Of a DNA stretch of 28,506 nucleotides, positions 3,272-27,606 are shown in pieces. The notes below the pieces were generated by a model. The model searched no databases. It was not told the DNA's origin and saw only the letters and a list, made by a program, of their open reading frames with translations. A program made the translations under genes and the position numbers. The DNA comes from a virus. The stretch spans positions 1 through 28,506 of the IMG/VR virus record IMGVR_UViG_3300009106_000021. One strand, given 5' to 3'. Every line of letters begins with the position of its first letter. Position 1 is the first letter of the stretch.

Positions 3272-3466
3272 TTATTTCTCTAATAATTGTTTTAATAAAT
3301 CTTTAATCTCTGAAACATCATTTTCCAATTGATTAATACGATTCTGATCTTTTTCAAATTTCTTTTTTGCTTCCTTTGCAATACCTGCATTAGTCCTATT
3401 CTTATTTATAATAGCACCCGAAGATGGATCCCTATATAAATCAGCATGTCCCTTTACTGGTATCAT
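3272..3466 (-). CDS. Small coiled-coil protein, 64 aa
   Basis: This 64-residue protein starts MIPVKGHADLYRDPSSGAII, a segment typical of a short conserved protein found beside structural genes in T4-like marine phages. It ends in a predicted coiled coil (about residues 30-64: alternating I/L/V positions in NRINQLENDVSEIKDLLKQL). Its ATG overlaps the stop of the 1655-aa gene as ATGA, so translation is likely coupled. It may be a small adaptor or assembly helper for the fibre-like proteins on either side. The function is not known and the suggestion rests on position and shape. Confidence 0.7.
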   Translation of the reverse strand: MIPVKGHADLYRDPSSGAIINKNRTNAGIAKEAKKKFEKDQNRINQLENDVSEIKDLLKQLLEK

Positions 3467-6400
3467 GCTTGTAAAGCAATAGCCCTTAAGCTTTGTACTG
3501 ATGGAACCTTTGATGTTGTTTGTGATGTAAATACAATCTTAATAGCAAACAAAGTAAATTCATTAACATCAATAGTATATTCCATTTCAGTATAATCACC
3601 AGCATCAGAATATGGTATTGTTAATGGGGCTTCAACCCAATTTAAAGTATCAAAGGTACTTGATTCAGAACCAGTCTTATGATATACTTGTACATTAGTA
3701 AATGATGGTCTATTAACATCTAAATAAAGTTTAAGTTGATCTGATGAATCATCCAATTGAACTGTTTTAGTTAAATATTTAGAAAGAACAGAACCTTTAG
3801 TTGGGTCAGTTTCGTCAAAGTAATTAGCAACAACATTATGTCCAGCCGTGGTAGTAGCAGCAGGGTTATCAATTCTATTTGAAATAGTAATAACAGAACA
3901 TCTATCCATATCTACAACCGGAGACAAATTATCTTTAGTTGAAGTGAATATACCATTAAGCTCCAACGAAGGAGTTGAACCTTGTTTAATAATCTTAGGT
4001 GCTTGTGGAGTATAGTTCTCATTAATGATAATAGGTAAATATGTAGAACCAAGTAGACCTGTATCTTCCATTGAATCTTTAATACCCCAAACCATACCAG
4101 TATTAGGTAATGTAACTTCCTGTACTAATGGATACACTGTATTAAATGCCAGGTTTTGTGTGGCTGTGACTGTATTATTACCATCAATACCAGTACCAGA
4201 AGCATTACTTGAACATGTAATAGTATATCTATCACGTTCAACAGCTGAAATAGTATGAGTATCAGTAACTTCTGAAGTTGGAATACCATTAATAGAAGCA
4301 ATATTTTCATCAACATCGATTGTTACTGAATCACCATCAGACATACCATGGTTTCTATGAGACACAATAATTTCAGACGAACCATTAGTTGTTTGGAATG
4401 GATCATTTTCTAATGCTCTAGTAGGTAACTCTTTATTCTTAAGAACAAGAGAAGCTTCAGCCGAAGTATCAAATACTGCACGATTCAACACGAATGTTAA
4501 GTCTTTATTTTGATCCGGAGTCCATGTTGAAGCATTCTGTGATTTAAACATAACACCATTATATGGTTGTTTAGAGATTCTATTACCTTCTTCATCTTCT
4601 TCACCAATCTCTGCATATTGAACCATGTACTCATTTGAATTAGCCATAACAACAAAACAATATTCAATATTATCTTGTAAATAAACAGGTGAGTCAAATG
4701 TAAATGTAGTAGAGGTTCCATCAACATTTACATCAGAAGCATTAACTGTTGTGTCTGAGAAAGGAATAACTTCCTGGGTAGGAATACCTTGGTCCATTTT
4801 TCTAAATTGAATTTGAACTGGAATGTTTTCATCTTTAGTAGTAAAGAATATTTCAAGAGATGTAACAAATACACCACCATCATTATCCAATAGAATAGAT
4901 TGTGCAAGAGGATCACCCCAATTCATTGTCCATTCTCTTCTTCGAGAAGTTGAAGTAGAAGTAATTACCCTTGAATCAGATACATTTGTTCTTTGAATTG
5001 AAGGTACACGAGTAGAGATAACTACATTTTCTTTAGTCTCAATAAGACCTTTTGCAGAATATGTAGTTGCCGCGGATGTACCAGTTTCTTCTTCATTATT
5101 AGTAGATGAATCAGTCAATAAGAATGTTTTATCACCAGTCTTAAAGTTTAATGATGGGTTATTAGGTACAAAGAATGAACCAGATAAATTACCATTAGCA
5201 TCTGTAATTAATGTAGTAGAACCACCCGGAAAACTTGTATTATTATTAACACCAACCGAAGGTGTTACACTCGATGGTTGTGTTGATACATAATCAGCCA
5301 CAGATATATCATCAAAGAATGCAAACACTTCAGTATTAGGTCTTAATCTTGTTGCATTAAATGTAACAATACGTGATCTCATAAATGGTGCGAAGTTAAC
5401 TTCAACAACCCTATCACCAATATTTGTATTTACTGTTTCAGTACCAATAGATGTTCTAACACCTGATCTACCTTGGTTTCTTGTAGTAGTGGTAGTAGTA
5501 ATTCTATCACGTCTCCACCATCTAGAATCTGTTCTTGATGTAGTTGATCTACCAGTCCAATTAGTTCGCCAAGAGTTCCATACAGTACCTGTTGCAACTG
5601 ACTGATCAGCAATATCTCTCATTGCATCAAATATACCATCTTGGTTAACAACAACCTGTGGTCTTTGGTCAGTATCTTTCCACTCATCAGAGCTTGGTGA
5701 TAATGCAACAGAACCTGTCCAGTTAAATACATCAAATGGATTAACATTAATTGTACCAGAGGATTGCGTTTGTGATATAACTGCCTTTGTTGTATATGGA
5801 AGGGTTACTAAGTCACCAGTCTTTTGAGTGGTGGATGAAGCATCATAATCCATACCAATATTACCTTCAGAGAATAAAGGTCTTAATGCACCAGAATCTC
5901 TATCAATACCTGCTTTAAATTCAGTTGAAGATGCTCTTGCAATGTTAGTAGAAGTAAATGAATCAACAAGGAAGCCTGACTTCCATCTGTCCATACCATT
6001 AGAGCCAAGAATTTGTTTATTCTCTGCTTCTTTCTCTAATAGGTTAAGAGTAGTATAATACTCAAGGTTACCAATACGACGATCAAGCTTACCAATGTCA
6101 CGCATTGTGTATCTTCTATTGTCAATATATTTAATAGTAACTTCTTCCGGATTTAATGTATAGGCCGGAACAAATAAGTGATATAATACCATTGCATCTT
6201 TAGGTGTGCCTGGGTCTTTAGGATCAAGATCCGATACACCTTCAAGTACACCAAAGTCACCATCTTTATCTAAATAAACTTTATCAATTCTATTTAAGTA
6301 GTATTGGATGTCTGTTTCAAATTGTGTATCTGGTCTAGGAGTGTTAGACACTGAAGCACCATTACCCGTAAAGTTACCACCACCATTGTTCATACGAGGT

Positions 6401-8430
6401 CTAAAGTCTACGGCTGATCTTAATTCGATACCGCCATGACTTGGAATATCTTCATAGTTAGCTTGACCAGTATATGAATCAATTGTAAAGAAGTCGCCGG
6501 TACCATGATCGAAGTAATCATACACAACATCTAAGTCATCATTAATTACATAGTTAGTTGTTACTTTAAGTGTTATAGTACCTACACCATAATGTGTATC
6601 AGTTTGGCCATTATTAAAGTCAAAGTGATCAGTCACATCCTGGCCTGAAGTAGCTTCCTGAATAGACACAATACGTAATACATCACAATGGTCTAAATTA
6701 ACCGGTGATGTAAAGTCACCAGATTGTGGTAGTTGAACTCCTTGGTTAGACACAAGTGTTTTTGTCTTATGTTCTAATGTTCTGTTTGTTGGAGCAATAA
6801 GAGTTAAGTAATCTTGATCAATAGTTTGGTCAATCCCTGTAATAGTTACTTGAGGAGGGGTATTAGCATTATCAATTGTAATATCACCCGATGTAAATGG
6901 TACAATAAAACCAGTATCATTATTAGATAATATCCAGTTCGATGTGTCATATCCACCAAATGTTTCATTAGCTAATGAAGCAAGGAAAGATACTTGATTT
7001 GAAGCAACTTGTGATGTACCAATAACTCTATTTGTTTCAAAACGATAGTTAAAATCTGCCGGATTGTTTTCATCAAGTTCGGCTGAACATGTTTTAATTC
7101 TTGTATATGGTAATGCATATACTAATGTATCAGAAGCCAAGTTATAACCTTCAATAGCTGAAGCATTAAATGAGCTCGAAGGTGAATCAATTGACACAGC
7201 ACCAGTAATAGTACCTGTTAAATCAAATACATGTAATCTATAATGACCAGATGTAGGTAATGCTTGCATTGATCTAATTCTAGCTGTACCTGTTTGAGTA
7301 CCACCAACATCTAATAGTTGTACTGTATTATAATTATCAATTTCAGGTAACGATGTAATACCAGACACATCAATATAGTTATTATGTGTTACCTCAACAA
7401 CTTTATCTGTGGCTAAGTCTACTTCTCTTGCTTTATTAACATCAACATTTGTAGTGTTTAATGTTTGAATTTCATAGCCTCTTACATAAGCCTTCGAGGG
7501 TTCAATACCAATACTTAATTTAGTACTATCACCATCAACATTGTCTTTCATTTGTGCAGGGAATGGGTTAACTGTATAGTTACCACTCTCATCAAATGTT
7601 CTTCTTGCCATTGTATCTTCAATTATGGCATAATCTGTTGTTCTTGCATGCTTAGCAATAGAACCATTTTCAAGTCTTGCAAGTAATACAAAGTTACCTG
7701 TATTAGCATTGTTTGCTTGTTTAGTTAATGTTGTAGTAATTGAATATCTGTGGGCACCAGGTGCAGATTCATTAGGGGTACCTTGGGCATTATCATTTAA
7801 TGATGCATCATCACCTGCTCCTACAATTGATTCAGTAACTTTTAAACCAACATCATACGATACCGTAGTACTATATTTAGAAAGTACAATTGTAGCCTTC
7901 TTAACAATAACAAAATGTTTCTTAATGTAATATATACCATCATCAACAGATACTAGGGAACCAAAGCCACTTGAAGCTACTGTTGCTGTTAAGCTTGATG
8001 GGCCAGTTAAAGAAGTACCATCAACAAACTTATCAGAACCTGAAACATAATTAACAAATAATGTTACTGGGTCTGTATCAGTTGCTGCTTCGGCGTGCAC
8101 AACCTTTACTGTTGAAGTTCCATTAGTAAATTCTGATCCAATTAGATCTGACATATTAGTTGTATTAACCGCGGATAATTTTAAGTAATCAATCTTATTA
8201 TATACTGAAACTCCACCTGGAATTACAATTGAACCTTCTTTAAACATATGATCACCAACAGATGATACTTGGTTTTGAAGCATTGATTGTAATTGAGTTA
8301 ACTCTCTTGCTTGAACAGCATGCTCAGGTCTAAAAAGAATTTTATTATATTTTTCTTTTGGAGTTAATCCATCCGCAGTGGGTGTATTATAATCATCCCA
8401 ATATGGTTCAATGTTAAACTTAATTGCCAT
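3463..8430 (-). CDS. Giant DUF4815-type baseplate/fibre structural protein, 1655 aa
   Basis: This is the largest gene in the window. The N-terminus (YWDDYNTPTADGLTPKEKYNKILFRP, then AVQARELTQLQSMLQ and a GDHMFKEGSIVIPGG stretch) matches my memory of the DUF4815 family of large virion proteins in marine T4-like and SPO1-like phages. The rest is mostly beta-rich with Ser/Thr/Asn/Asp, and has an unusual tract at about residues 955-1010 rich in Arg, Trp and Thr (WRTNWTGRSTTSR, then RWWRRDR and a run of six Thr). It follows gp8, where T4 has the gp9-gp12 fibre-attachment genes, none of which I can recognise here. It may replace some of them as a baseplate-periphery or fibre-bearing protein. The ribosome binding site is AGGAATAACAA. 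The structural role is well supported; the exact position in the virion is inference. Confidence 0.8.
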   Translation of the reverse strand: MAIKFNIEPYWDDYNTPTADGLTPKEKYNKILFRPEHAVQARELTQLQSMLQNQVSSVGDHMFKEGSIVIPGGVSVYNKIDYLKLSAVNTTNMSDLIGSEFTNGTSTVKVVHAEAATDTDPVTLFVNYVSGSDKFVDGTSLTGPSSLTATVASSGFGSLVSVDDGIYYIKKHFVIVKKATIVLSKYSTTVSYDVGLKVTESIVGAGDDASLNDNAQGTPNESAPGAHRYSITTTLTKQANNANTGNFVLLARLENGSIAKHARTTDYAIIEDTMARRTFDESGNYTVNPFPAQMKDNVDGDSTKLSIGIEPSKAYVRGYEIQTLNTTNVDVNKAREVDLATDKVVEVTHNNYIDVSGITSLPEIDNYNTVQLLDVGGTQTGTARIRSMQALPTSGHYRLHVFDLTGTITGAVSIDSPSSSFNASAIEGYNLASDTLVYALPYTRIKTCSAELDENNPADFNYRFETNRVIGTSQVASNQVSFLASLANETFGGYDTSNWILSNNDTGFIVPFTSGDITIDNANTPPQVTITGIDQTIDQDYLTLIAPTNRTLEHKTKTLVSNQGVQLPQSGDFTSPVNLDHCDVLRIVSIQEATSGQDVTDHFDFNNGQTDTHYGVGTITLKVTTNYVINDDLDVVYDYFDHGTGDFFTIDSYTGQANYEDIPSHGGIELRSAVDFRPRMNNGGGNFTGNGASVSNTPRPDTQFETDIQYYLNRIDKVYLDKDGDFGVLEGVSDLDPKDPGTPKDAMVLYHLFVPAYTLNPEEVTIKYIDNRRYTMRDIGKLDRRIGNLEYYTTLNLLEKEAENKQILGSNGMDRWKSGFLVDSFTSTNIARASSTEFKAGIDRDSGALRPLFSEGNIGMDYDASSTTQKTGDLVTLPYTTKAVISQTQSSGTINVNPFDVFNWTGSVALSPSSDEWKDTDQRPQVVVNQDGIFDAMRDIADQSVATGTVWNSWRTNWTGRSTTSRTDSRWWRRDRITTTTTTRNQGRSGVRTSIGTETVNTNIGDRVVEVNFAPFMRSRIVTFNATRLRPNTEVFAFFDDISVADYVSTQPSSVTPSVGVNNNTSFPGGSTTLITDANGNLSGSFFVPNNPSLNFKTGDKTFLLTDSSTNNEEETGTSAATTYSAKGLIETKENVVISTRVPSIQRTNVSDSRVITSTSTSRRREWTMNWGDPLAQSILLDNDGGVFVTSLEIFFTTKDENIPVQIQFRKMDQGIPTQEVIPFSDTTVNASDVNVDGTSTTFTFDSPVYLQDNIEYCFVVMANSNEYMVQYAEIGEEDEEGNRISKQPYNGVMFKSQNASTWTPDQNKDLTFVLNRAVFDTSAEASLVLKNKELPTRALENDPFQTTNGSSEIIVSHRNHGMSDGDSVTIDVDENIASINGIPTSEVTDTHTISAVERDRYTITCSSNASGTGIDGNNTVTATQNLAFNTVYPLVQEVTLPNTGMVWGIKDSMEDTGLLGSTYLPIIINENYTPQAPKIIKQGSTPSLELNGIFTSTKDNLSPVVDMDRCSVITISNRIDNPAATTTAGHNVVANYFDETDPTKGSVLSKYLTKTVQLDDSSDQLKLYLDVNRPSFTNVQVYHKTGSESSTFDTLNWVEAPLTIPYSDAGDYTEMEYTIDVNEFTLFAIKIVFTSQTTSKVPSVQSLRAIALQA

Positions 8431-19511: not shown

Positions 19512-20240
19512 ATGTTGCCAGTAGGAATAGACACATTAAAATCCACCATTGGTAGACGAGGTGGTGTGGCTAGATCAAATAGATTTGCCATTTATATTAC
19601 ACACCCAAATAAAAAGCAAGGCCTTTTAAATACTGATTGGTCTGGCCTTGCATCCAATTTACTTACGACGGCAATACAACCAGGGCCAGGGAAGATAGAT
19701 CCTATGGTGTTCTTTAATGACCCTAGGGATATGTTCCTATTATGTGATTCTGTTCAACTACCAGGTCGAAGAATAGCGACAATGGAAAGACGTACCACAC
19801 ATAAAGCAATTAAGAAACCATATTCTTATCTTGTAGATGAAGTAACATTTACTTTTACTTTAACCAATGATTATTATATTAAGAAATATTTTGATTCTTG
19901 GCAAGATATGATTGTGTCTGGCTCCGATAAAGGCATTGCCTATAAGGATACATACACAACAGATATTGTTATTCAACAAATGGGATCAGGTAATGATTTT
20001 ATACCAGCATATGGTGTTAAATTAATTAATGCATTCCCTATCTCTGTTGGTACAATAGATTTATCTAACCAGTCTGAAAATGATGTGGTGAAGGTAACAA
20101 TAACAGTCGGGTTTGATGACTGGAAAGATGAAAGCTTATTAGATTCTGCAATGTCAGTAATCGATCAAGGTAAAAAGCTTTTAACTGGTACAGGAGCCCA
20201 ATTCGATTCAATTTATAATAGCATGAAAGGATTTTTTTAA
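19512..20240 (+). CDS. 54: Tail-tube family protein, probably tube initiator gp54
   Basis: This 242-residue protein has the tail-tube/initiator pattern: an N-terminal GGVARSNRFAIYI strand, then CDSVQLPGRRIATMERR (78-94), VDEVTFTFTLTNDYYIKKYFDSW (108-130), DTYTTDIVIQQM and NAFPISVGTIDLS, ending with VVKVTITVGFDDW. These are shared by gp19 and gp54. Gp54 binds gp48 and starts tube polymerisation, and in T4 it lies in the hub operon. Being next to a hub chaperone and the tape measure favours gp54, but a tail tube gp19 cannot be excluded without seeing the sheath gene. The ribosome binding site is AGGAAG. The gene ends GGA TTT TTT TAA and is followed after three bases, in the same frame, by the gp26-like gene. 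Confidence 0.68.
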   Translation: MLPVGIDTLKSTIGRRGGVARSNRFAIYITHPNKKQGLLNTDWSGLASNLLTTAIQPGPGKIDPMVFFNDPRDMFLLCDSVQLPGRRIATMERRTTHKAIKKPYSYLVDEVTFTFTLTNDYYIKKYFDSWQDMIVSGSDKGIAYKDTYTTDIVIQQMGSGNDFIPAYGVKLINAFPISVGTIDLSNQSENDVVKVTITVGFDDWKDESLLDSAMSVIDQGKKLLTGTGAQFDSIYNSMKGFF

Positions 20241-20243
20241 AAT

Positions 20244-20948
20244 ATGAATATATTACCAACAATTGAAGTGCCAGAGTATTCATTAGTTGTACCCTCATCT
20301 AATAAGAATATTAAATATAGACCATACTTGGTCAAAGAAGAAAAGATACTACTAATAGCATTAGAGTCTAAAGATGAAACGCAGATAGAAAATGCTATTA
20401 ATAATATAGTATTGAGTTGCACACAGAATATTACATTGGATGATTTAACTGTATTTGATCTTGAATATATCTTTGTTAAGATAAGAGCAATATCAGTGGG
20501 AGAAACAGCAGAATTAGGTTATAAATGTGGCGCGGAAGGGTGTGATATTGTAACAAATGTTAAAGTAAATTTTAATGATATTAAAGTGGTCGGTCTTGAA
20601 GATAATAATATGAGACATGACTTAGGTGATGGACTTATCATTGATTTAAAATATCCATCAATTGCTGATAAAGAAATATTTAAAGACATTGATGATGATG
20701 ATATTATTATTACATCTGTGGCTAATTCAATTGATACCATTTATTATGGGGATGAAATATACAATACAAAAACAATTGAATTGAGTGAAGTGATTGAGTT
20801 CTTAGGTAACTTAAATACTACTCAATTCAATCCATTGTTGGCAGGTGTACTTACAATGCCACATATCAATTATGATATTAAATGGGTGTGTAAATGTGGT
20901 GAAGAAAATCAAATAAGTTATAATTCATTATCTGATTTTTTTATATAG
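20244..20948 (+). CDS. 26: Baseplate hub assembly chaperone, gp26/gp51 family
   Basis: This 234-residue protein belongs to the T4 baseplate-hub family represented by gp26/gp51 (T4_baseplate type). Signs are a short N-terminal IEVPEYSLVVPSS, a helical KEEKILLIALESKDETQIENAI segment, FDLEYIFVKIRAISVGE, and two cysteine pairs (C95/C100 and C206/C208) that would form a zinc ribbon. It probably helps assemble the hub and does not stay in it, as tail-assembly chaperones do. Seven Ts (20936-20942) immediately precede the last codon and TAG stop. The -1 frame continues for 59 codons, so a longer form of about 292 residues is possible. No strong Shine-Dalgarno is visible; only AAAGGA about 15 nt upstream. 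Confidence 0.72.
   Translation: MNILPTIEVPEYSLVVPSSNKNIKYRPYLVKEEKILLIALESKDETQIENAINNIVLSCTQNITLDDLTVFDLEYIFVKIRAISVGETAELGYKCGAEGCDIVTNVKVNFNDIKVVGLEDNNMRHDLGDGLIIDLKYPSIADKEIFKDIDDDDIIITSVANSIDTIYYGDEIYNTKTIELSEVIEFLGNLNTTQFNPLLAGVLTMPHINYDIKWVCKCGEENQISYNSLSDFFI
20936..20942 (+). promoter_or_regulatory. Slippery T7 site for possible -1 frameshift
   Basis: The sequence reads GAT TTT TTT ATA TAG in the chaperone frame. T TTT TTT is a canonical X XXY YYZ heptamer, so both tRNA-Phe can re-pair after a one-base backward slip. The new frame reads TAT ATA GCT and stays open for 59 codons. I see no clear pseudoknot downstream; GGAGGAG at 21001 is too far to act as an internal Shine-Dalgarno stimulator. 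Confidence 0.55.
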
Positions 20949-21121
20949 CTCTTTCCAATAACTCCCTTGAAAATGTATACCGAGGGAATTTTATTATTGC
21001 GGAGGAGCATAACTTTACATTGAGTGAATTAGATAATATGATCCCTTGGGAAAGGGAAATATATGTAGCATTAATTGACAATAAAATTAAAGAAGAAACA
21101 AAACGATTAACTGAAGGTTAA
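20942..21121 (+). CDS. -1 frame extension of the hub chaperone (59 codons), likely made by frameshifting
   Basis: This frame is open from a TGA at 20933 to TAA 21119-21121 and has no ATG in its first 30 codons. Read by a -1 slip on the T7 run it begins YIALSNNSLENVYRGNFII and goes on with EEHNFTLSELDNM and PWEREIYVALIDNKIKEE, an ordered, helix-like protein sequence. It ends two bases before the tape-measure ATG. Other ways to make it are initiation at TTG 21020 (behind GGAGGAG at 21001-21007, 12 nt away) or ATG 21038, each leaving a much shorter product, or a homopolymer sequencing error that splits one gene. The position and content fit the second half of a tail-assembly chaperone. Confidence 0.65.
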   Translation, partial: YIALSNNSLENVYRGNFIIAEEHNFTLSELDNMIPWEREIYVALIDNKIKEETKRLTEG

Positions 21122-21123
21122 CT

Positions 21124-23133
21124 ATGGGAAAGACATCAATAGGCGGAAAAGGTATTAAGGCGGGTCAAAGAACAACCCGAGCTACAGCAGAAGTAAGTGA
21201 GGATGGATCCTCATTAAGTTCTACGGGATTCGATAGAGTTCAGTTTGGTCCTGCCTCAGGTGCAGGTGCCTTGGAAGGAGCAATACAACAAGGTAATGAA
21301 CAACAGTTAAATGCCTTAGGTGATGTATCGAATAGACTAGACTCAGTTAACGGTGCCCTCTCTGATCTTAATTCCAATATGGAAACTCTAAAGAAACTAG
21401 AGACAGCCACATTACTATTTGAATTTGCTAAGTTTGGTGACTTCGGTAAAACCTTTGATACCATGGATAATAAATTTGAATCTATGGGTAAAACATTTGA
21501 TAAAATGGATGATGTTGCAGAAAGAAATAAAGATTCAATTGATGCTAACTTCGATGAGTTAATTGCCCGTACTGATGCAGGTTCTAGAAGTATTGTTAAA
21601 GCAATAACTCGTATGCACGGTATGTTATCTGGTGACAGTGAAGCACAATTAAAGACACGAATGACTAATACCTCGGCGTCACAAAATGAGCAATTAATGA
21701 GAGCTCGTAATGTTAGAGATGCTCAGCGCAAAGTATATGCAAAACATGGTATATACAAAGTCACTGGTGAATCACCAAACGACGCCAGAGAAGATTTTGC
21801 TAAAGAAACTCGTAATGCTTCTAATAAGTCTAAGGCTCGAGAAGGGTTAAGAATTAAAGCTGGCCAGACCCATTGGGAAGTTAATCAAGTTTTAAGTAAA
21901 ACTCAAGGCTGGGCGGCAAGAAACAATAGAGAAGATGTATTAAATAAAGTCCAAAAAGAACGAAAAAAATTAAAAGCCAGAAATAAAGACTTTCATCAAC
22001 TACAAATATTTGACCATGGTGATTTAGCTTCTGTTAAAAATAGTTACACGGGCCCTGATGGAAAGCGAATAACAACAAAAGGCAGCCGCGTAGTTTATAA
22101 TAGAGACCATAATAGAAAGTTTTTTGGTGGCGGTGGCGGTGGCATGAATTGTTGTGATGATTTAGTATCAATATTAAAAGATATTGAAATAAATACCCAC
22201 GTTTTTAGAGAAGTTAAAGAAGAATTTAAAGCATCCTTTAAGAAACCATCGTCAATGGCATTAAGAGAAAATGCTAACGAGGTAGCCAATAGGAATAGAA
22301 ACCTTACTATTGCAAGTCAAAATACAGGTTTAAGCTCATCACAGAATAAGAATCCACTATTATTAGGTGGACCACAAAGGCAAGAAAAATATGCTGGGTC
22401 TAATTGGGATATGATACCTTATGGTGGTGGTGGTAAGAAAAATAAAATGCCTAAAGGTAAGCCTGGCTTAATTAAAAGATTTGGTCAAATGCTTGCTAAA
22501 TATGGTTGGGCATTTGCTGGATATGTTATTAGAATAGCTCCTTGGTTGGCTCCAATGTTTACCCCTATGGGTGCAGCAATTGCTGTAGGTGCTGCTATAT
22601 TATTCATTCAATATCAAGATGATATTATTAAACTTATGGATGATTATGAAGCAAATCAAAAAGCTATTGAAGCAGCCAATAAAGTTAAATTAGAAAATGA
22701 AAAGAAAGGTCTTGTTGCTGTTGTTGATTCTGAAACAGGCACTGCATCTAATATGTCTTTAGAGGATGCACAAAACCAACAACTTGAAGATGTAGCCAAC
22801 GGTCTACCCCCATCAACAATTGACGCTGTTGCAGGCGGCAAGGCCGATATATCAAATACTGTGGCCCCTTTAACTACACAATTAATTAAAAATAATGCCA
22901 AACGACTTAAGGCGCAAAGGATTGCTGAAGACAAAGCTAAGGCAGAGGCGGAAGCTAAGGCAGCTGCAGAAAAACAGAACGTAAATCTATATGATAATAG
23001 TAATAGTAATAATTCTACAAGTCATATTGTTCATCAATATGGTCATTTAATAGATGAAATGGTAAAAGGTGGTATTGATAGTACTCTTAGAACAGATGTA
23101 CCAACTTCAGGTACATTCACACCTGGTAACTAG
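21124..23133 (+). CDS. 29: Tail tape-measure protein (gp29-like)
   Basis: This 669-residue protein fits a tape measure by position (after the hub chaperone) and by makeup. It has long helical, charged segments (about residues 55-150 and 180-300), a hydrophobic stretch at about 461-496 (GWAFAGYVIRIAPWLAPMF then AAIAVGAAILFI) that could enter the host membrane, and an Ala/Lys/Glu-rich helix near the C-terminus. A hexaglycine at about 335-340 is followed by MNCCDD, an unusual flexible joint with two adjacent cysteines. T4 gp29 is 590 residues. Tape-measure proteins set tube length and are ejected ahead of the DNA. The start ATG lies two bases after the chaperone extension, with GAAGGT as weak ribosome binding site. 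Confidence 0.75.
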   Translation: MGKTSIGGKGIKAGQRTTRATAEVSEDGSSLSSTGFDRVQFGPASGAGALEGAIQQGNEQQLNALGDVSNRLDSVNGALSDLNSNMETLKKLETATLLFEFAKFGDFGKTFDTMDNKFESMGKTFDKMDDVAERNKDSIDANFDELIARTDAGSRSIVKAITRMHGMLSGDSEAQLKTRMTNTSASQNEQLMRARNVRDAQRKVYAKHGIYKVTGESPNDAREDFAKETRNASNKSKAREGLRIKAGQTHWEVNQVLSKTQGWAARNNREDVLNKVQKERKKLKARNKDFHQLQIFDHGDLASVKNSYTGPDGKRITTKGSRVVYNRDHNRKFFGGGGGGMNCCDDLVSILKDIEINTHVFREVKEEFKASFKKPSSMALRENANEVANRNRNLTIASQNTGLSSSQNKNPLLLGGPQRQEKYAGSNWDMIPYGGGGKKNKMPKGKPGLIKRFGQMLAKYGWAFAGYVIRIAPWLAPMFTPMGAAIAVGAAILFIQYQDDIIKLMDDYEANQKAIEAANKVKLENEKKGLVAVVDSETGTASNMSLEDAQNQQLEDVANGLPPSTIDAVAGGKADISNTVAPLTTQLIKNNAKRLKAQRIAEDKAKAEAEAKAAAEKQNVNLYDNSNSNNSTSHIVHQYGHLIDEMVKGGIDSTLRTDVPTSGTFTPGN

Positions 23134-26512: not shown

Positions 26513-27181
26513 CTATCCTTTAGTGAAGTCACCCCATAATTCCATAGCTTCTTCAAGGTTTTTAACAGACCATGAAATAGTTTTCTTATTATCTGTAATT
26601 GGTTCATACCCATTATCAATAAGATTTTTAGAAAAAGCATCTCTCCAATCATCAGTTACATTTTTACCCCAAATCGAAACAGACACTCCATCAGAGTCTA
26701 CATATATTTTAAATGCCCTGCGTTCCTTATCGGATGATTCAACATAAAAAGATGATTTACGAGCAACAATCACAGCGACATTACCATATGATTCAAGTTG
26801 ATCTCTTAACTCATTACATTCAACAAAGAAATTTCTTTTAGATTCTTCATACTCATTAAATAGAAAATTTAGTTTACTCATTTCAAAACACTCCTTATAG
26901 TGACCAGCGACTTTATTGTCTGCCACATTATCATCATCATGTAGGTCATACCTACTAATTAAAAAAGATTCAAGCAATAAACTTGGTTTATTTTCAAATC
27001 GTTCTAAGTTCTTACCTAGTATATGTAGATCATCAAGGTCATATCCCTTTGTTTTAATATGAGACATACCTCGTTTACCAACACCTTTACCAACATAGAC
27101 CATTTTGCCTGTGTTAGGATCTAAATATGTGTAAACATATTCACCTAAGGTATCAAAGAATTCTTGACTTGGTTTTTTCAT
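26513..27181 (-). CDS. GIY-YIG endonuclease
   Basis: This 222-residue protein has a GIY-YIG nuclease domain at its N-terminus: EYVYTYLDP (YVY at 15-17), then MVYVGKG (29-33), Arg37 and His41 in GKRGMSHI, and a conserved Glu71 in LLESFLI. The order matches the catalytic tyrosines, Arg and metal-binding Glu of the family, close to the variant with VYVGKG and a following R...H. The C-terminal 140 residues have no motif I know and may bind DNA. The gene starts on the HNH gene's stop (TAATG), with GGAG upstream, so the two are probably translated together. A freestanding homing endonuclease is likely; a general phage nuclease is also possible. Confidence 0.82.
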   Translation of the reverse strand: MKKPSQEFFDTLGEYVYTYLDPNTGKMVYVGKGVGKRGMSHIKTKGYDLDDLHILGKNLERFENKPSLLLESFLISRYDLHDDDNVADNKVAGHYKECFEMSKLNFLFNEYEESKRNFFVECNELRDQLESYGNVAVIVARKSSFYVESSDKERRAFKIYVDSDGVSVSIWGKNVTDDWRDAFSKNLIDNGYEPITDNKKTISWSVKNLEEAMELWGDFTKG

Positions 27182-27606
27182 TATTTATCTCCATGATAAT
27201 GAATGTATGATAGTTTTCTATTCTCTTCACGTGTAACCAATTCTAGATTAGATGGATGAAAGTTAGTATTATCATGGTCAATATGATGAACTTCAAATGC
27301 CTGTCTTGCTATATTTTGTATTGACTTAGGTGTTCTTTCCCATTCATCAGCATCAATACTTGCGGGAAATTTAATAGTTGGATTTAATGTATAAAATACT
27401 GCAATATGAACTTGGATAGTTTTTTTATCATCTAACGTAACTGAAGGATATGCTTTACCACCTGTAGTAAGCATTCTAGGTTCTTTACCTTTAAAAGACC
27501 ATATGTCACCTGTATCATTATCGACACCATAATCATTATATTCTTTAAGATTAGTTCTTAAAGGGCTTTTTATAATAATTGGTTTAATGTTATTTTCGTT
27601 TTTCAT
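27181..27606 (-). CDS. HNH homing endonuclease with NUMOD4-like N-terminus
   Basis: This 141-residue protein ends in an HNH motif: EVHHIDHDNTNFHPSNLEL, then VTREENR, with His107, His108, Asp110, Asn120 and Asn127 in the usual pattern. The N-terminal part (EYNDYGVDNDTGDIWSF, then TLDDKKTIQVHIAVFYTLNP) resembles the NUMOD4/HNH_3 arrangement of phage homing endonucleases, where the first part binds DNA. It is complete and has a strong ribosome binding site (AAAAAAGGAGTTAC) and its own sigma70-like promoter. It cuts DNA to spread itself into related genomes lacking the gene. It shares its transcript with the GIY-YIG gene downstream, which is unusual as the two nuclease types are unrelated. Confidence 0.88.
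   Translation of the reverse strand: MKNENNIKPIIIKSPLRTNLKEYNDYGVDNDTGDIWSFKGKEPRMLTTGGKAYPSVTLDDKKTIQVHIAVFYTLNPTIKFPASIDADEWERTPKSIQNIARQAFEVHHIDHDNTNFHPSNLELVTREENRKLSYIHYHGDK

What the first reader, a model, noticed from the sequence alone, without database searches (positions are those of the whole stretch)
20925..21124. Programmed -1 frameshift linking a T4-type hub chaperone to a 59-codon extension before the tape measure
Seen: a T7 run (20936-20942) sits just before the TAG of the gp26/gp51-family gene. In frame, T TTT TTT is an ideal slippery heptamer. A -1 slip enters a frame open to TAA 21119-21121 with ordered protein sequence and no ATG near its start. The tape-measure ATG follows two bases later. 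Known: in most long-tailed phages, two overlapping chaperone genes joined by frameshifting lie just before the tape measure (lambda G/GT; Xu, Hendrix and Duda). I know of no such frameshift described for T4 gp26/gp51. Inference: this T4-like branch uses the same strategy, giving short (234 aa) and long (about 292 aa) forms. A homopolymer miscall would be a simpler alternative.
Basis: partly seen in the sequence, partly recalled or inferred. Interest (0 to 1): 0.75.

Follow-up and report, generated by a model that had tools for sequence, protein, structure and literature searches.

The report
Phage tail-chaperone frameshift site
This marine T4-like virus almost certainly makes a short and a long version of its tail-building helper protein by having some ribosomes slip back one base; the trick is already published for T4-like phages, and what this site adds is an unusually clear RNA hairpin, expected to promote the slip.

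Summary
Window 20936-20942 is an in-frame T TTT TTT heptamer, two codons before the TAG of a PF12322 (T4 gp26-like) gene. The -1 frame is open to TAA 21119-21121, and the tape-measure ATG follows at 21124. The extension is the C-terminal domain that many cyanophage records annotate separately as "gp51".

Comparative evidence for a programmed -1 frameshift is strong. All 158 distinct junctions examined have the extension in the -1 frame and keep T TTT TTN. Against its nearest relative the -1 frame has dN/dS 0.13, the other two about 1.3. The predicted fold of the short form matches solved tail assembly chaperones best. In the window a -22.9 kcal/mol hairpin starts 5 nt after the slip site, and its basal helix is kept in five relatives. 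Most relatives also carry a Shine-Dalgarno-like stretch 8-11 nt upstream; the window lacks it.

The novelty claim fails. The tail assembly chaperones of T4-like phages were identified by Vladimirov, Gautam and Davidson (2022), and a later paper credits them with poly-T slip signals there. T4 itself uses two genes (26 and 51). This is a new member of a known kind. The slip itself is inferred, not measured.

The parts
20244..20948 (+). TAC-N: short tail assembly chaperone, T4 gp26-like, PF12322 / phrog_150, 234 aa
   Evidence: Pfam E 8.5e-53; PHROG E 4.6e-56; AlphaFold model pLDDT 91.6 whose best solved-structure matches are tail assembly chaperones
20936..20942 (+). slippery heptamer T TTT TTT, tandem -1 slip of two tRNA-Phe
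   Evidence: read in frame; T TTT TTN in 158 of 158 distinct junctions
20943..20947 (+). 5-nt spacer ATATA between heptamer and hairpin; the first two bases of the in-frame TAG (20946-20948) lie in it, its G is the first base of the hairpin
20948..21008 (+). predicted stimulatory RNA hairpin: basal helix 20948-20955 with 21001-21008, further pairing inside; -22.9 kcal/mol for the 72 nt after the heptamer
   Evidence: z -4.2 against dinucleotide shuffles, 0 of 200 as stable; z -5.6 against synonymous recoding, strongest of 157 loci; basal 8 bp paired in 6 of 6 clade members
20942..21121 (+). TAC-C: C-terminal domain reached by -1 frameshift, gp51-type (phrog_634), 59 codons plus TAA; long product TAC-NC 292 aa
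   Evidence: phrog_634 E 2.2e-20, phrog_150 C-terminus E 2.1e-5; -1 frame dN/dS 0.13 against L206
21124..23133 (+). probable tape measure protein, 669 aa
   Evidence: position directly after TAC-C; equivalent gene annotated tail tape measure in HTVC008M and Cr30; no Pfam family, and only weak hits to PHROGs of other or unknown function
19512..20240 (+). tail tube protein, upstream neighbour
   Evidence: phrog_45 E 5.5e-29

Best explanation
This is the tail assembly chaperone locus of an uncultivated T4-like phage whose nearest named relatives are Kyanoviridae. Most ribosomes stop at TAG 20946-20948 and make the short chaperone TAC-N (234 aa). At T TTT TTT (20936-20942) a minority slip back one base, helped by a hairpin that starts 5 nt downstream, read through 59 more codons and make TAC-NC (292 aa). 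By analogy with lambda gpG/gpGT, TAC-N coats the tape measure protein encoded next door, and the TAC-C part of the few TAC-NC molecules brings tail tube subunits to it. Shown here: sequence anatomy, conservation, purifying selection on the -1 frame, predicted chaperone fold, predicted hairpin. Inferred: that slipping occurs, its rate, and the assembly role.
For: Anatomy. TAC-C is in the -1 frame in every one of 171 loci where both domains were found, never fused in frame; T TTT TTN in 158 of 158 distinct junctions (93 TTC, 59 TTT, 6 TTA as last codon). The first Phe codon is always TTT, against 74% elsewhere in the genes, while the second varies freely. Against L206, dN/dS is 0.13 in the -1 frame and about 1.3 in the other two. 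TAC-C is conserved from the slip site onward, upstream of any start codon near it. Hairpin 5 nt downstream. The TAC-N model's three best solved-structure matches are 3fgx (Z 8.1), HK97 chaperone 2ob9 (7.4) and YqbN 3klu (7.2), with the next at 4.4. T4 gp26 carries TAC-N only, while T4 gp51 carries a diverged TAC-N plus TAC-C in one frame, which shows that a fused product exists in the family.
Against: No ribosome profiling, peptide or reporter data. The window lacks the Shine-Dalgarno-like element that most relatives have. The hairpin helix shows no compensatory double change, only one G-U to A-U, and its 5' arm was fixed by the search pattern that found some of the relatives. Z of 7-8 in the fold comparison is middling taken alone.
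Confidence: 0.95

Rival explanations
1. Homopolymer miscall: the real sequence has one T more and the gene is one intact reading frame.
For: A T7 run is an error-prone stretch; the contig that matches the window exactly (L001/L211) ends where the window ends and is probably the same contig, so it is no independent check.
Against: The same T7 run is in the related contigs L188, L190, L191, L200 and L206; the -1 relation holds in 171 of 171 loci and in isolate genomes such as S-PM2, S-SM1, P-RSM6 and HTVC008M.
Confidence: 0.01
2. Two separate genes: TAC-C is translated on its own from an internal start, as annotated (gp51) in many cyanophage records.
For: GenBank records give gp51 its own CDS.
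Against: Annotated starts cut off conserved residues FFxIALxHxxLE that begin at the slip site. The window has no ATG, GTG or TTG in that frame until codon 27 after the slip. An invariant heptamer is not needed for this; T4 gp51 carries the domain fused to a TAC-N.
Confidence: 0.02
3. The frame change arises by RNA polymerase slippage on the T run rather than by ribosomal slipping.
For: T7 is a long run, and seven-base runs are noted as prone to transcriptional slippage (PMC4066793).
Against: 93 of 158 relatives have T6 followed by C, with the run kept in codon phase as a ribosomal heptamer and synonymous freedom only at its last base; an SD-like element or a hairpin at ribosomal spacing accompanies it.
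Confidence: 0.02

Closest known systems
Tail assembly chaperones of T4-like phages (Vladimirov, Gautam, Davidson 2022, Virology 566:9-15)
   Same: Same gene family (gp26 as TAC-N, gp51-type TAC-C), same strategy; PMC12846349 cites that paper for poly-T slip signals in TAC-N genes of T4-like phages.
   Different: The paper itself is not held. From memory, its abstract says frameshifting is conserved in several T4-like groups, while T4 encodes the two forms as genes 26 and 51. Whether it covers this lineage, the hairpin or the SD-like element could not be checked.
Phage lambda gpG/gpGT (Xu, Hendrix and Duda 2004)
   Same: Overlapping chaperone genes before the tape measure, -1 frameshift near the end of the short form, short and long products.
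   Different: Different slippery heptamer (own knowledge); TAC-N here has an extra domain beyond residues 1-94.
T4 genes 26 and 51
   Same: gp26 matches TAC-N (E 2.8e-22); gp51 residues 200-245 match TAC-C (E 2.8e-7).
   Different: T4 makes the two forms from two separate genes, not by frameshifting.
Vandenendeviridae/Andersonviridae chaperone frameshift (phage Adele, PMC12846349)
   Same: -1 frameshift at a T-rich motif before the tape measure; downstream frame often mis-annotated as a separate gene.
   Different: GTTTTT motif, different phage families.
E. coli dnaX and IS911 frameshift signals
   Same: Slippery heptamer with upstream SD-like element and/or downstream hairpin; stimulatory structures generally start 5-8 nt after the heptamer (PMC4066793).
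   Different: Different heptamers; the window has the hairpin but no SD-like element.

Membership tests
Frameshifted tail assembly chaperone (TAC-N/TAC-NC), T4-like branch | TAC-N homologous to gp26 / PF12322 | tested here: met
   E 8.5e-53
Frameshifted tail assembly chaperone (TAC-N/TAC-NC), T4-like branch | TAC-C homologous to gp51-type domain, in the -1 frame, no own start | tested here: met
   phrog_634 E 2.2e-20; frame and starts
Frameshifted tail assembly chaperone (TAC-N/TAC-NC), T4-like branch | Slippery heptamer in phase near the end of TAC-N, conserved | tested here: met
   158 of 158
Frameshifted tail assembly chaperone (TAC-N/TAC-NC), T4-like branch | Directly upstream of the tape measure gene | tested here: inconclusive
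   Next ORF starts 2 nt after TAC-C and is long; called tape measure by position and by annotation of the equivalent gene, not by a family match
Tail assembly chaperone fold (HK97 gp13, 2ob9) | TAC-N N-terminal domain shares the fold | tested here: met
   Foldseek top hits 2ob9 (weak E, prob 0.69); VIA Z 8.1, 7.4, 7.2 for 3fgx, 2ob9, 3klu over residues 1-94, next 4.4; that 3fgx and 3klu are phage-type chaperones is own knowledge
Frameshifted tail assembly chaperone (TAC-N/TAC-NC), T4-like branch | Both products made in a fixed ratio and needed for tails | not testable with these tools
   needs peptides or mutants
Programmed -1 frameshift signal | Stimulator: hairpin 5-8 nt downstream and/or SD-like element upstream | tested here: met
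   Hairpin at 5 nt; SD-like element absent in the window

The most novel reading that the evidence does not exclude
Within one conserved T TTT TTN frameshift system, lineages appear to swap stimulators: most have a Shine-Dalgarno-like element 8-11 nt upstream, many also have lineage-specific hairpins of different design starting about 5 nt downstream, and the window's clade has weakened or lost the upstream element while keeping a strong hairpin. The slip rate would then be held by selection while the RNA parts that set it turn over.
Probability: 0.4. Interest if true: 0.5.

Novelty: new member of a known kind. Interest (0 to 1): 0.33.

Why it matters
It corrects a widespread annotation: in Kyanoviridae records 'gp51' is probably not a gene of its own but the end of a frameshift product. 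It supports the view that gp26/gp51 of T4-like phages are tail assembly chaperones, with a predicted fold close to the HK97 chaperone. It also offers a large natural series for asking how stimulators of a fixed slippery site evolve.

Tried and rejected
Sequence search of the PDB with TAC-N and TAC-C profiles: only chance matches. A common downstream RNA structure for the whole family: RNAalifold gave none; structures are lineage-specific. Compensation between SD strength and hairpin strength across loci: no clear trade-off (r 0.18). L001/L211 as an independent check of the T run: dropped, since it matches the window without a mismatch and ends where it ends. Klebsiella paper PMC13119998 with 'frameshift' peptides: its main text shows no link to gp26. 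NCBIfam: no match.

Full report
What is in the window. The gene at 20244-20948 is a T4 gp26-type protein (PF12322, E 8.5e-53; phrog_150). Its last codons read GAT TTT TTT ATA TAG, so 20936-20942 is an ideal X XXY YYZ heptamer in phase. The -1 frame is open from 20936 to 21121 and encodes FFYIALSNNSLENVYRGNFIIAEEHNFTLSELDNMIPWEREIYVALIDNKIKEETKRLTEG. A TGA directly before the run closes that frame upstream. The tape-measure ATG is at 21124, two bases after the TAA.

What the extension is. It matches phrog_634 (baseplate hub assembly catalyst, gp51; E 2.2e-20) and the C-terminus of phrog_150. tblastn finds it in 631 phage records, mostly cyanophages, where it overlaps the end of gene 26 and is often annotated as a separate gp51 or left out. 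In HTVC008M and Mosig the annotated gp51 starts at an internal codon and drops conserved residues.

Conservation. Scans of IMG/VR plus isolate records gave 171 loci with both domains; in all of them the second is in the -1 frame, in none fused. At 158 distinct junctions the heptamer is T TTT TTC (93), T TTT TTT (59) or T TTT TTA (6), usually followed by a stop within two codons. The first Phe codon is TTT in 158 of 158, against 74% TTT elsewhere in these genes; the base before it is always T, although T-ending codons for the same residues run at 35-82% elsewhere; the second Phe codon is free. For 106 representatives under 70% identity these have nominal chances of 1.6e-14 and 4.1e-20; the representatives are still related, so these are not exact probabilities. 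Against the nearest relative found, L206 (75% DNA identity), the -1 frame has no stops and dN/dS 0.13, while the other two frames have 5 to 11 stops each and ratios near 1.3.

Stimulators. After the heptamer the window RNA folds into a hairpin of -22.9 kcal/mol starting 5 nt downstream (dinucleotide-shuffle z -4.2, 0 of 200 as stable; synonymous-recoding z -5.6, the strongest of 157 loci). The basal helix (GCUCUUUC with GGAGGAGC) is paired in all six members of its clade. The 3' arm was not part of the search pattern; there the second Glu codon is GAG in all six and the codon before the Glu pair always ends in G, as pairing requires, while the first Glu codon, opposite U, varies between GAA and GAG. 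Sisters without the 3' arm have GCC in place of GCT at the Ala codon, with one exception. There is no double compensatory change, so the helix is supported but not proven. Over the family, the 72 nt after the heptamer fold better than codon-permuted versions (mean z -1.32, 105 representatives), more than later TAC-C (-0.32) or TAC-N windows (-0.38). Hairpins differ in design between lineages and there is no family-wide consensus structure. Upstream, an SD-like tetramer 7-16 nt before the heptamer is in 86% of representatives against 8% of background windows; pairing with the anti-SD exceeds a synonymous null (-6.3 against -4.8 kcal/mol, null sd 0.10), although the Glu-Gly motif there contributes. 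The window has none (+0.4), and its hairpin clade is weak in general (+0.4 to -4.9).

Fold and family. An AlphaFold model of TAC-N (pLDDT 91.6) has the HK97 tail assembly chaperone 2ob9 as top Foldseek PDB hit, with weak E-value. In the structural re-alignment the three best rows are 3fgx, 2ob9 and 3klu (Z 8.1, 7.4, 7.2 over residues 1-94), with a gap to 4.4. To my knowledge all three are phage-type tail chaperones. T4 gp26 matches the TAC-N profile only; T4 gp51 matches both TAC-N (weakly) and TAC-C at residues 200-245. So T4 encodes the two forms as two genes where this phage and the Kyanoviridae use a frameshift. Isolates Cr30, pf16, Ps15, K571 and PhiW-14 have TAC-C in the -1 frame after T TTT TTY; Rhizobium RHph_I46 has T TTT TTG.

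Prior knowledge. Xu, Hendrix and Duda described the conserved frameshift in tailed phages; a 2016 review states it is widely conserved 'except T4' (PMC5009743). Vladimirov, Gautam and Davidson (2022) identified the chaperones of T4-like phages. That paper is not held here, but PMC10885494 cites it for T4-like phages that use a separate fusion gene, and PMC12846349 cites it for poly-T slip signals in TAC-N genes of T4-like phages. The finding is therefore a new member of a published kind. No held paper that I found describes the stimulators of the T4-like sites, but the original paper might.

Limits. Nothing here measures slipping. Loci are related and partly selected by sequence patterns. The exact-match contig L001/L211 ends where the window ends and is probably the same contig, so it does not confirm the T run independently; the relatives do.

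Noticed in passing
L182 2263-2307, L184 2197-2241, L181 2182-2226: In Ackermannviridae (Dickeya Kamild, Salmonella allotria) and Vibrio phage D492 the gp51-type domain is also in the -1 frame, but the end of TAC-N reads GAA ATT TTC, GAG ATT TTC or TCA CTT TTC, which is no standard slippery heptamer. How these phages reach the -1 frame is unexplained; the D492 match itself is weak (E 0.035).
   Followed up: partly
L008 1708-2040, L009 1692-1964, L185 1722-2051: Pelagibacter and Methylophilales Kyanoviridae have an extra small ORF of unknown function between TAC-C and the tape measure gene, absent from the window.
   Followed up: no
window 3463-8430 (-): A 1655-aa protein matching phrog_358 (no known function) with a very high score, next to the baseplate wedge genes.
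   Followed up: no
window 27181-27606 (-): HNH endonuclease-like gene (phrog_59, E 8.5e-13), possibly a homing endonuclease, among replication-type genes.
   Followed up: no
phage records such as KC465899, MT647606, HQ634193, GU071094, LN828717: 'gp51' in many Kyanoviridae records is probably the frameshifted end of gp26 rather than a separate gene; some records leave it unannotated (KU686202).
   Followed up: yes
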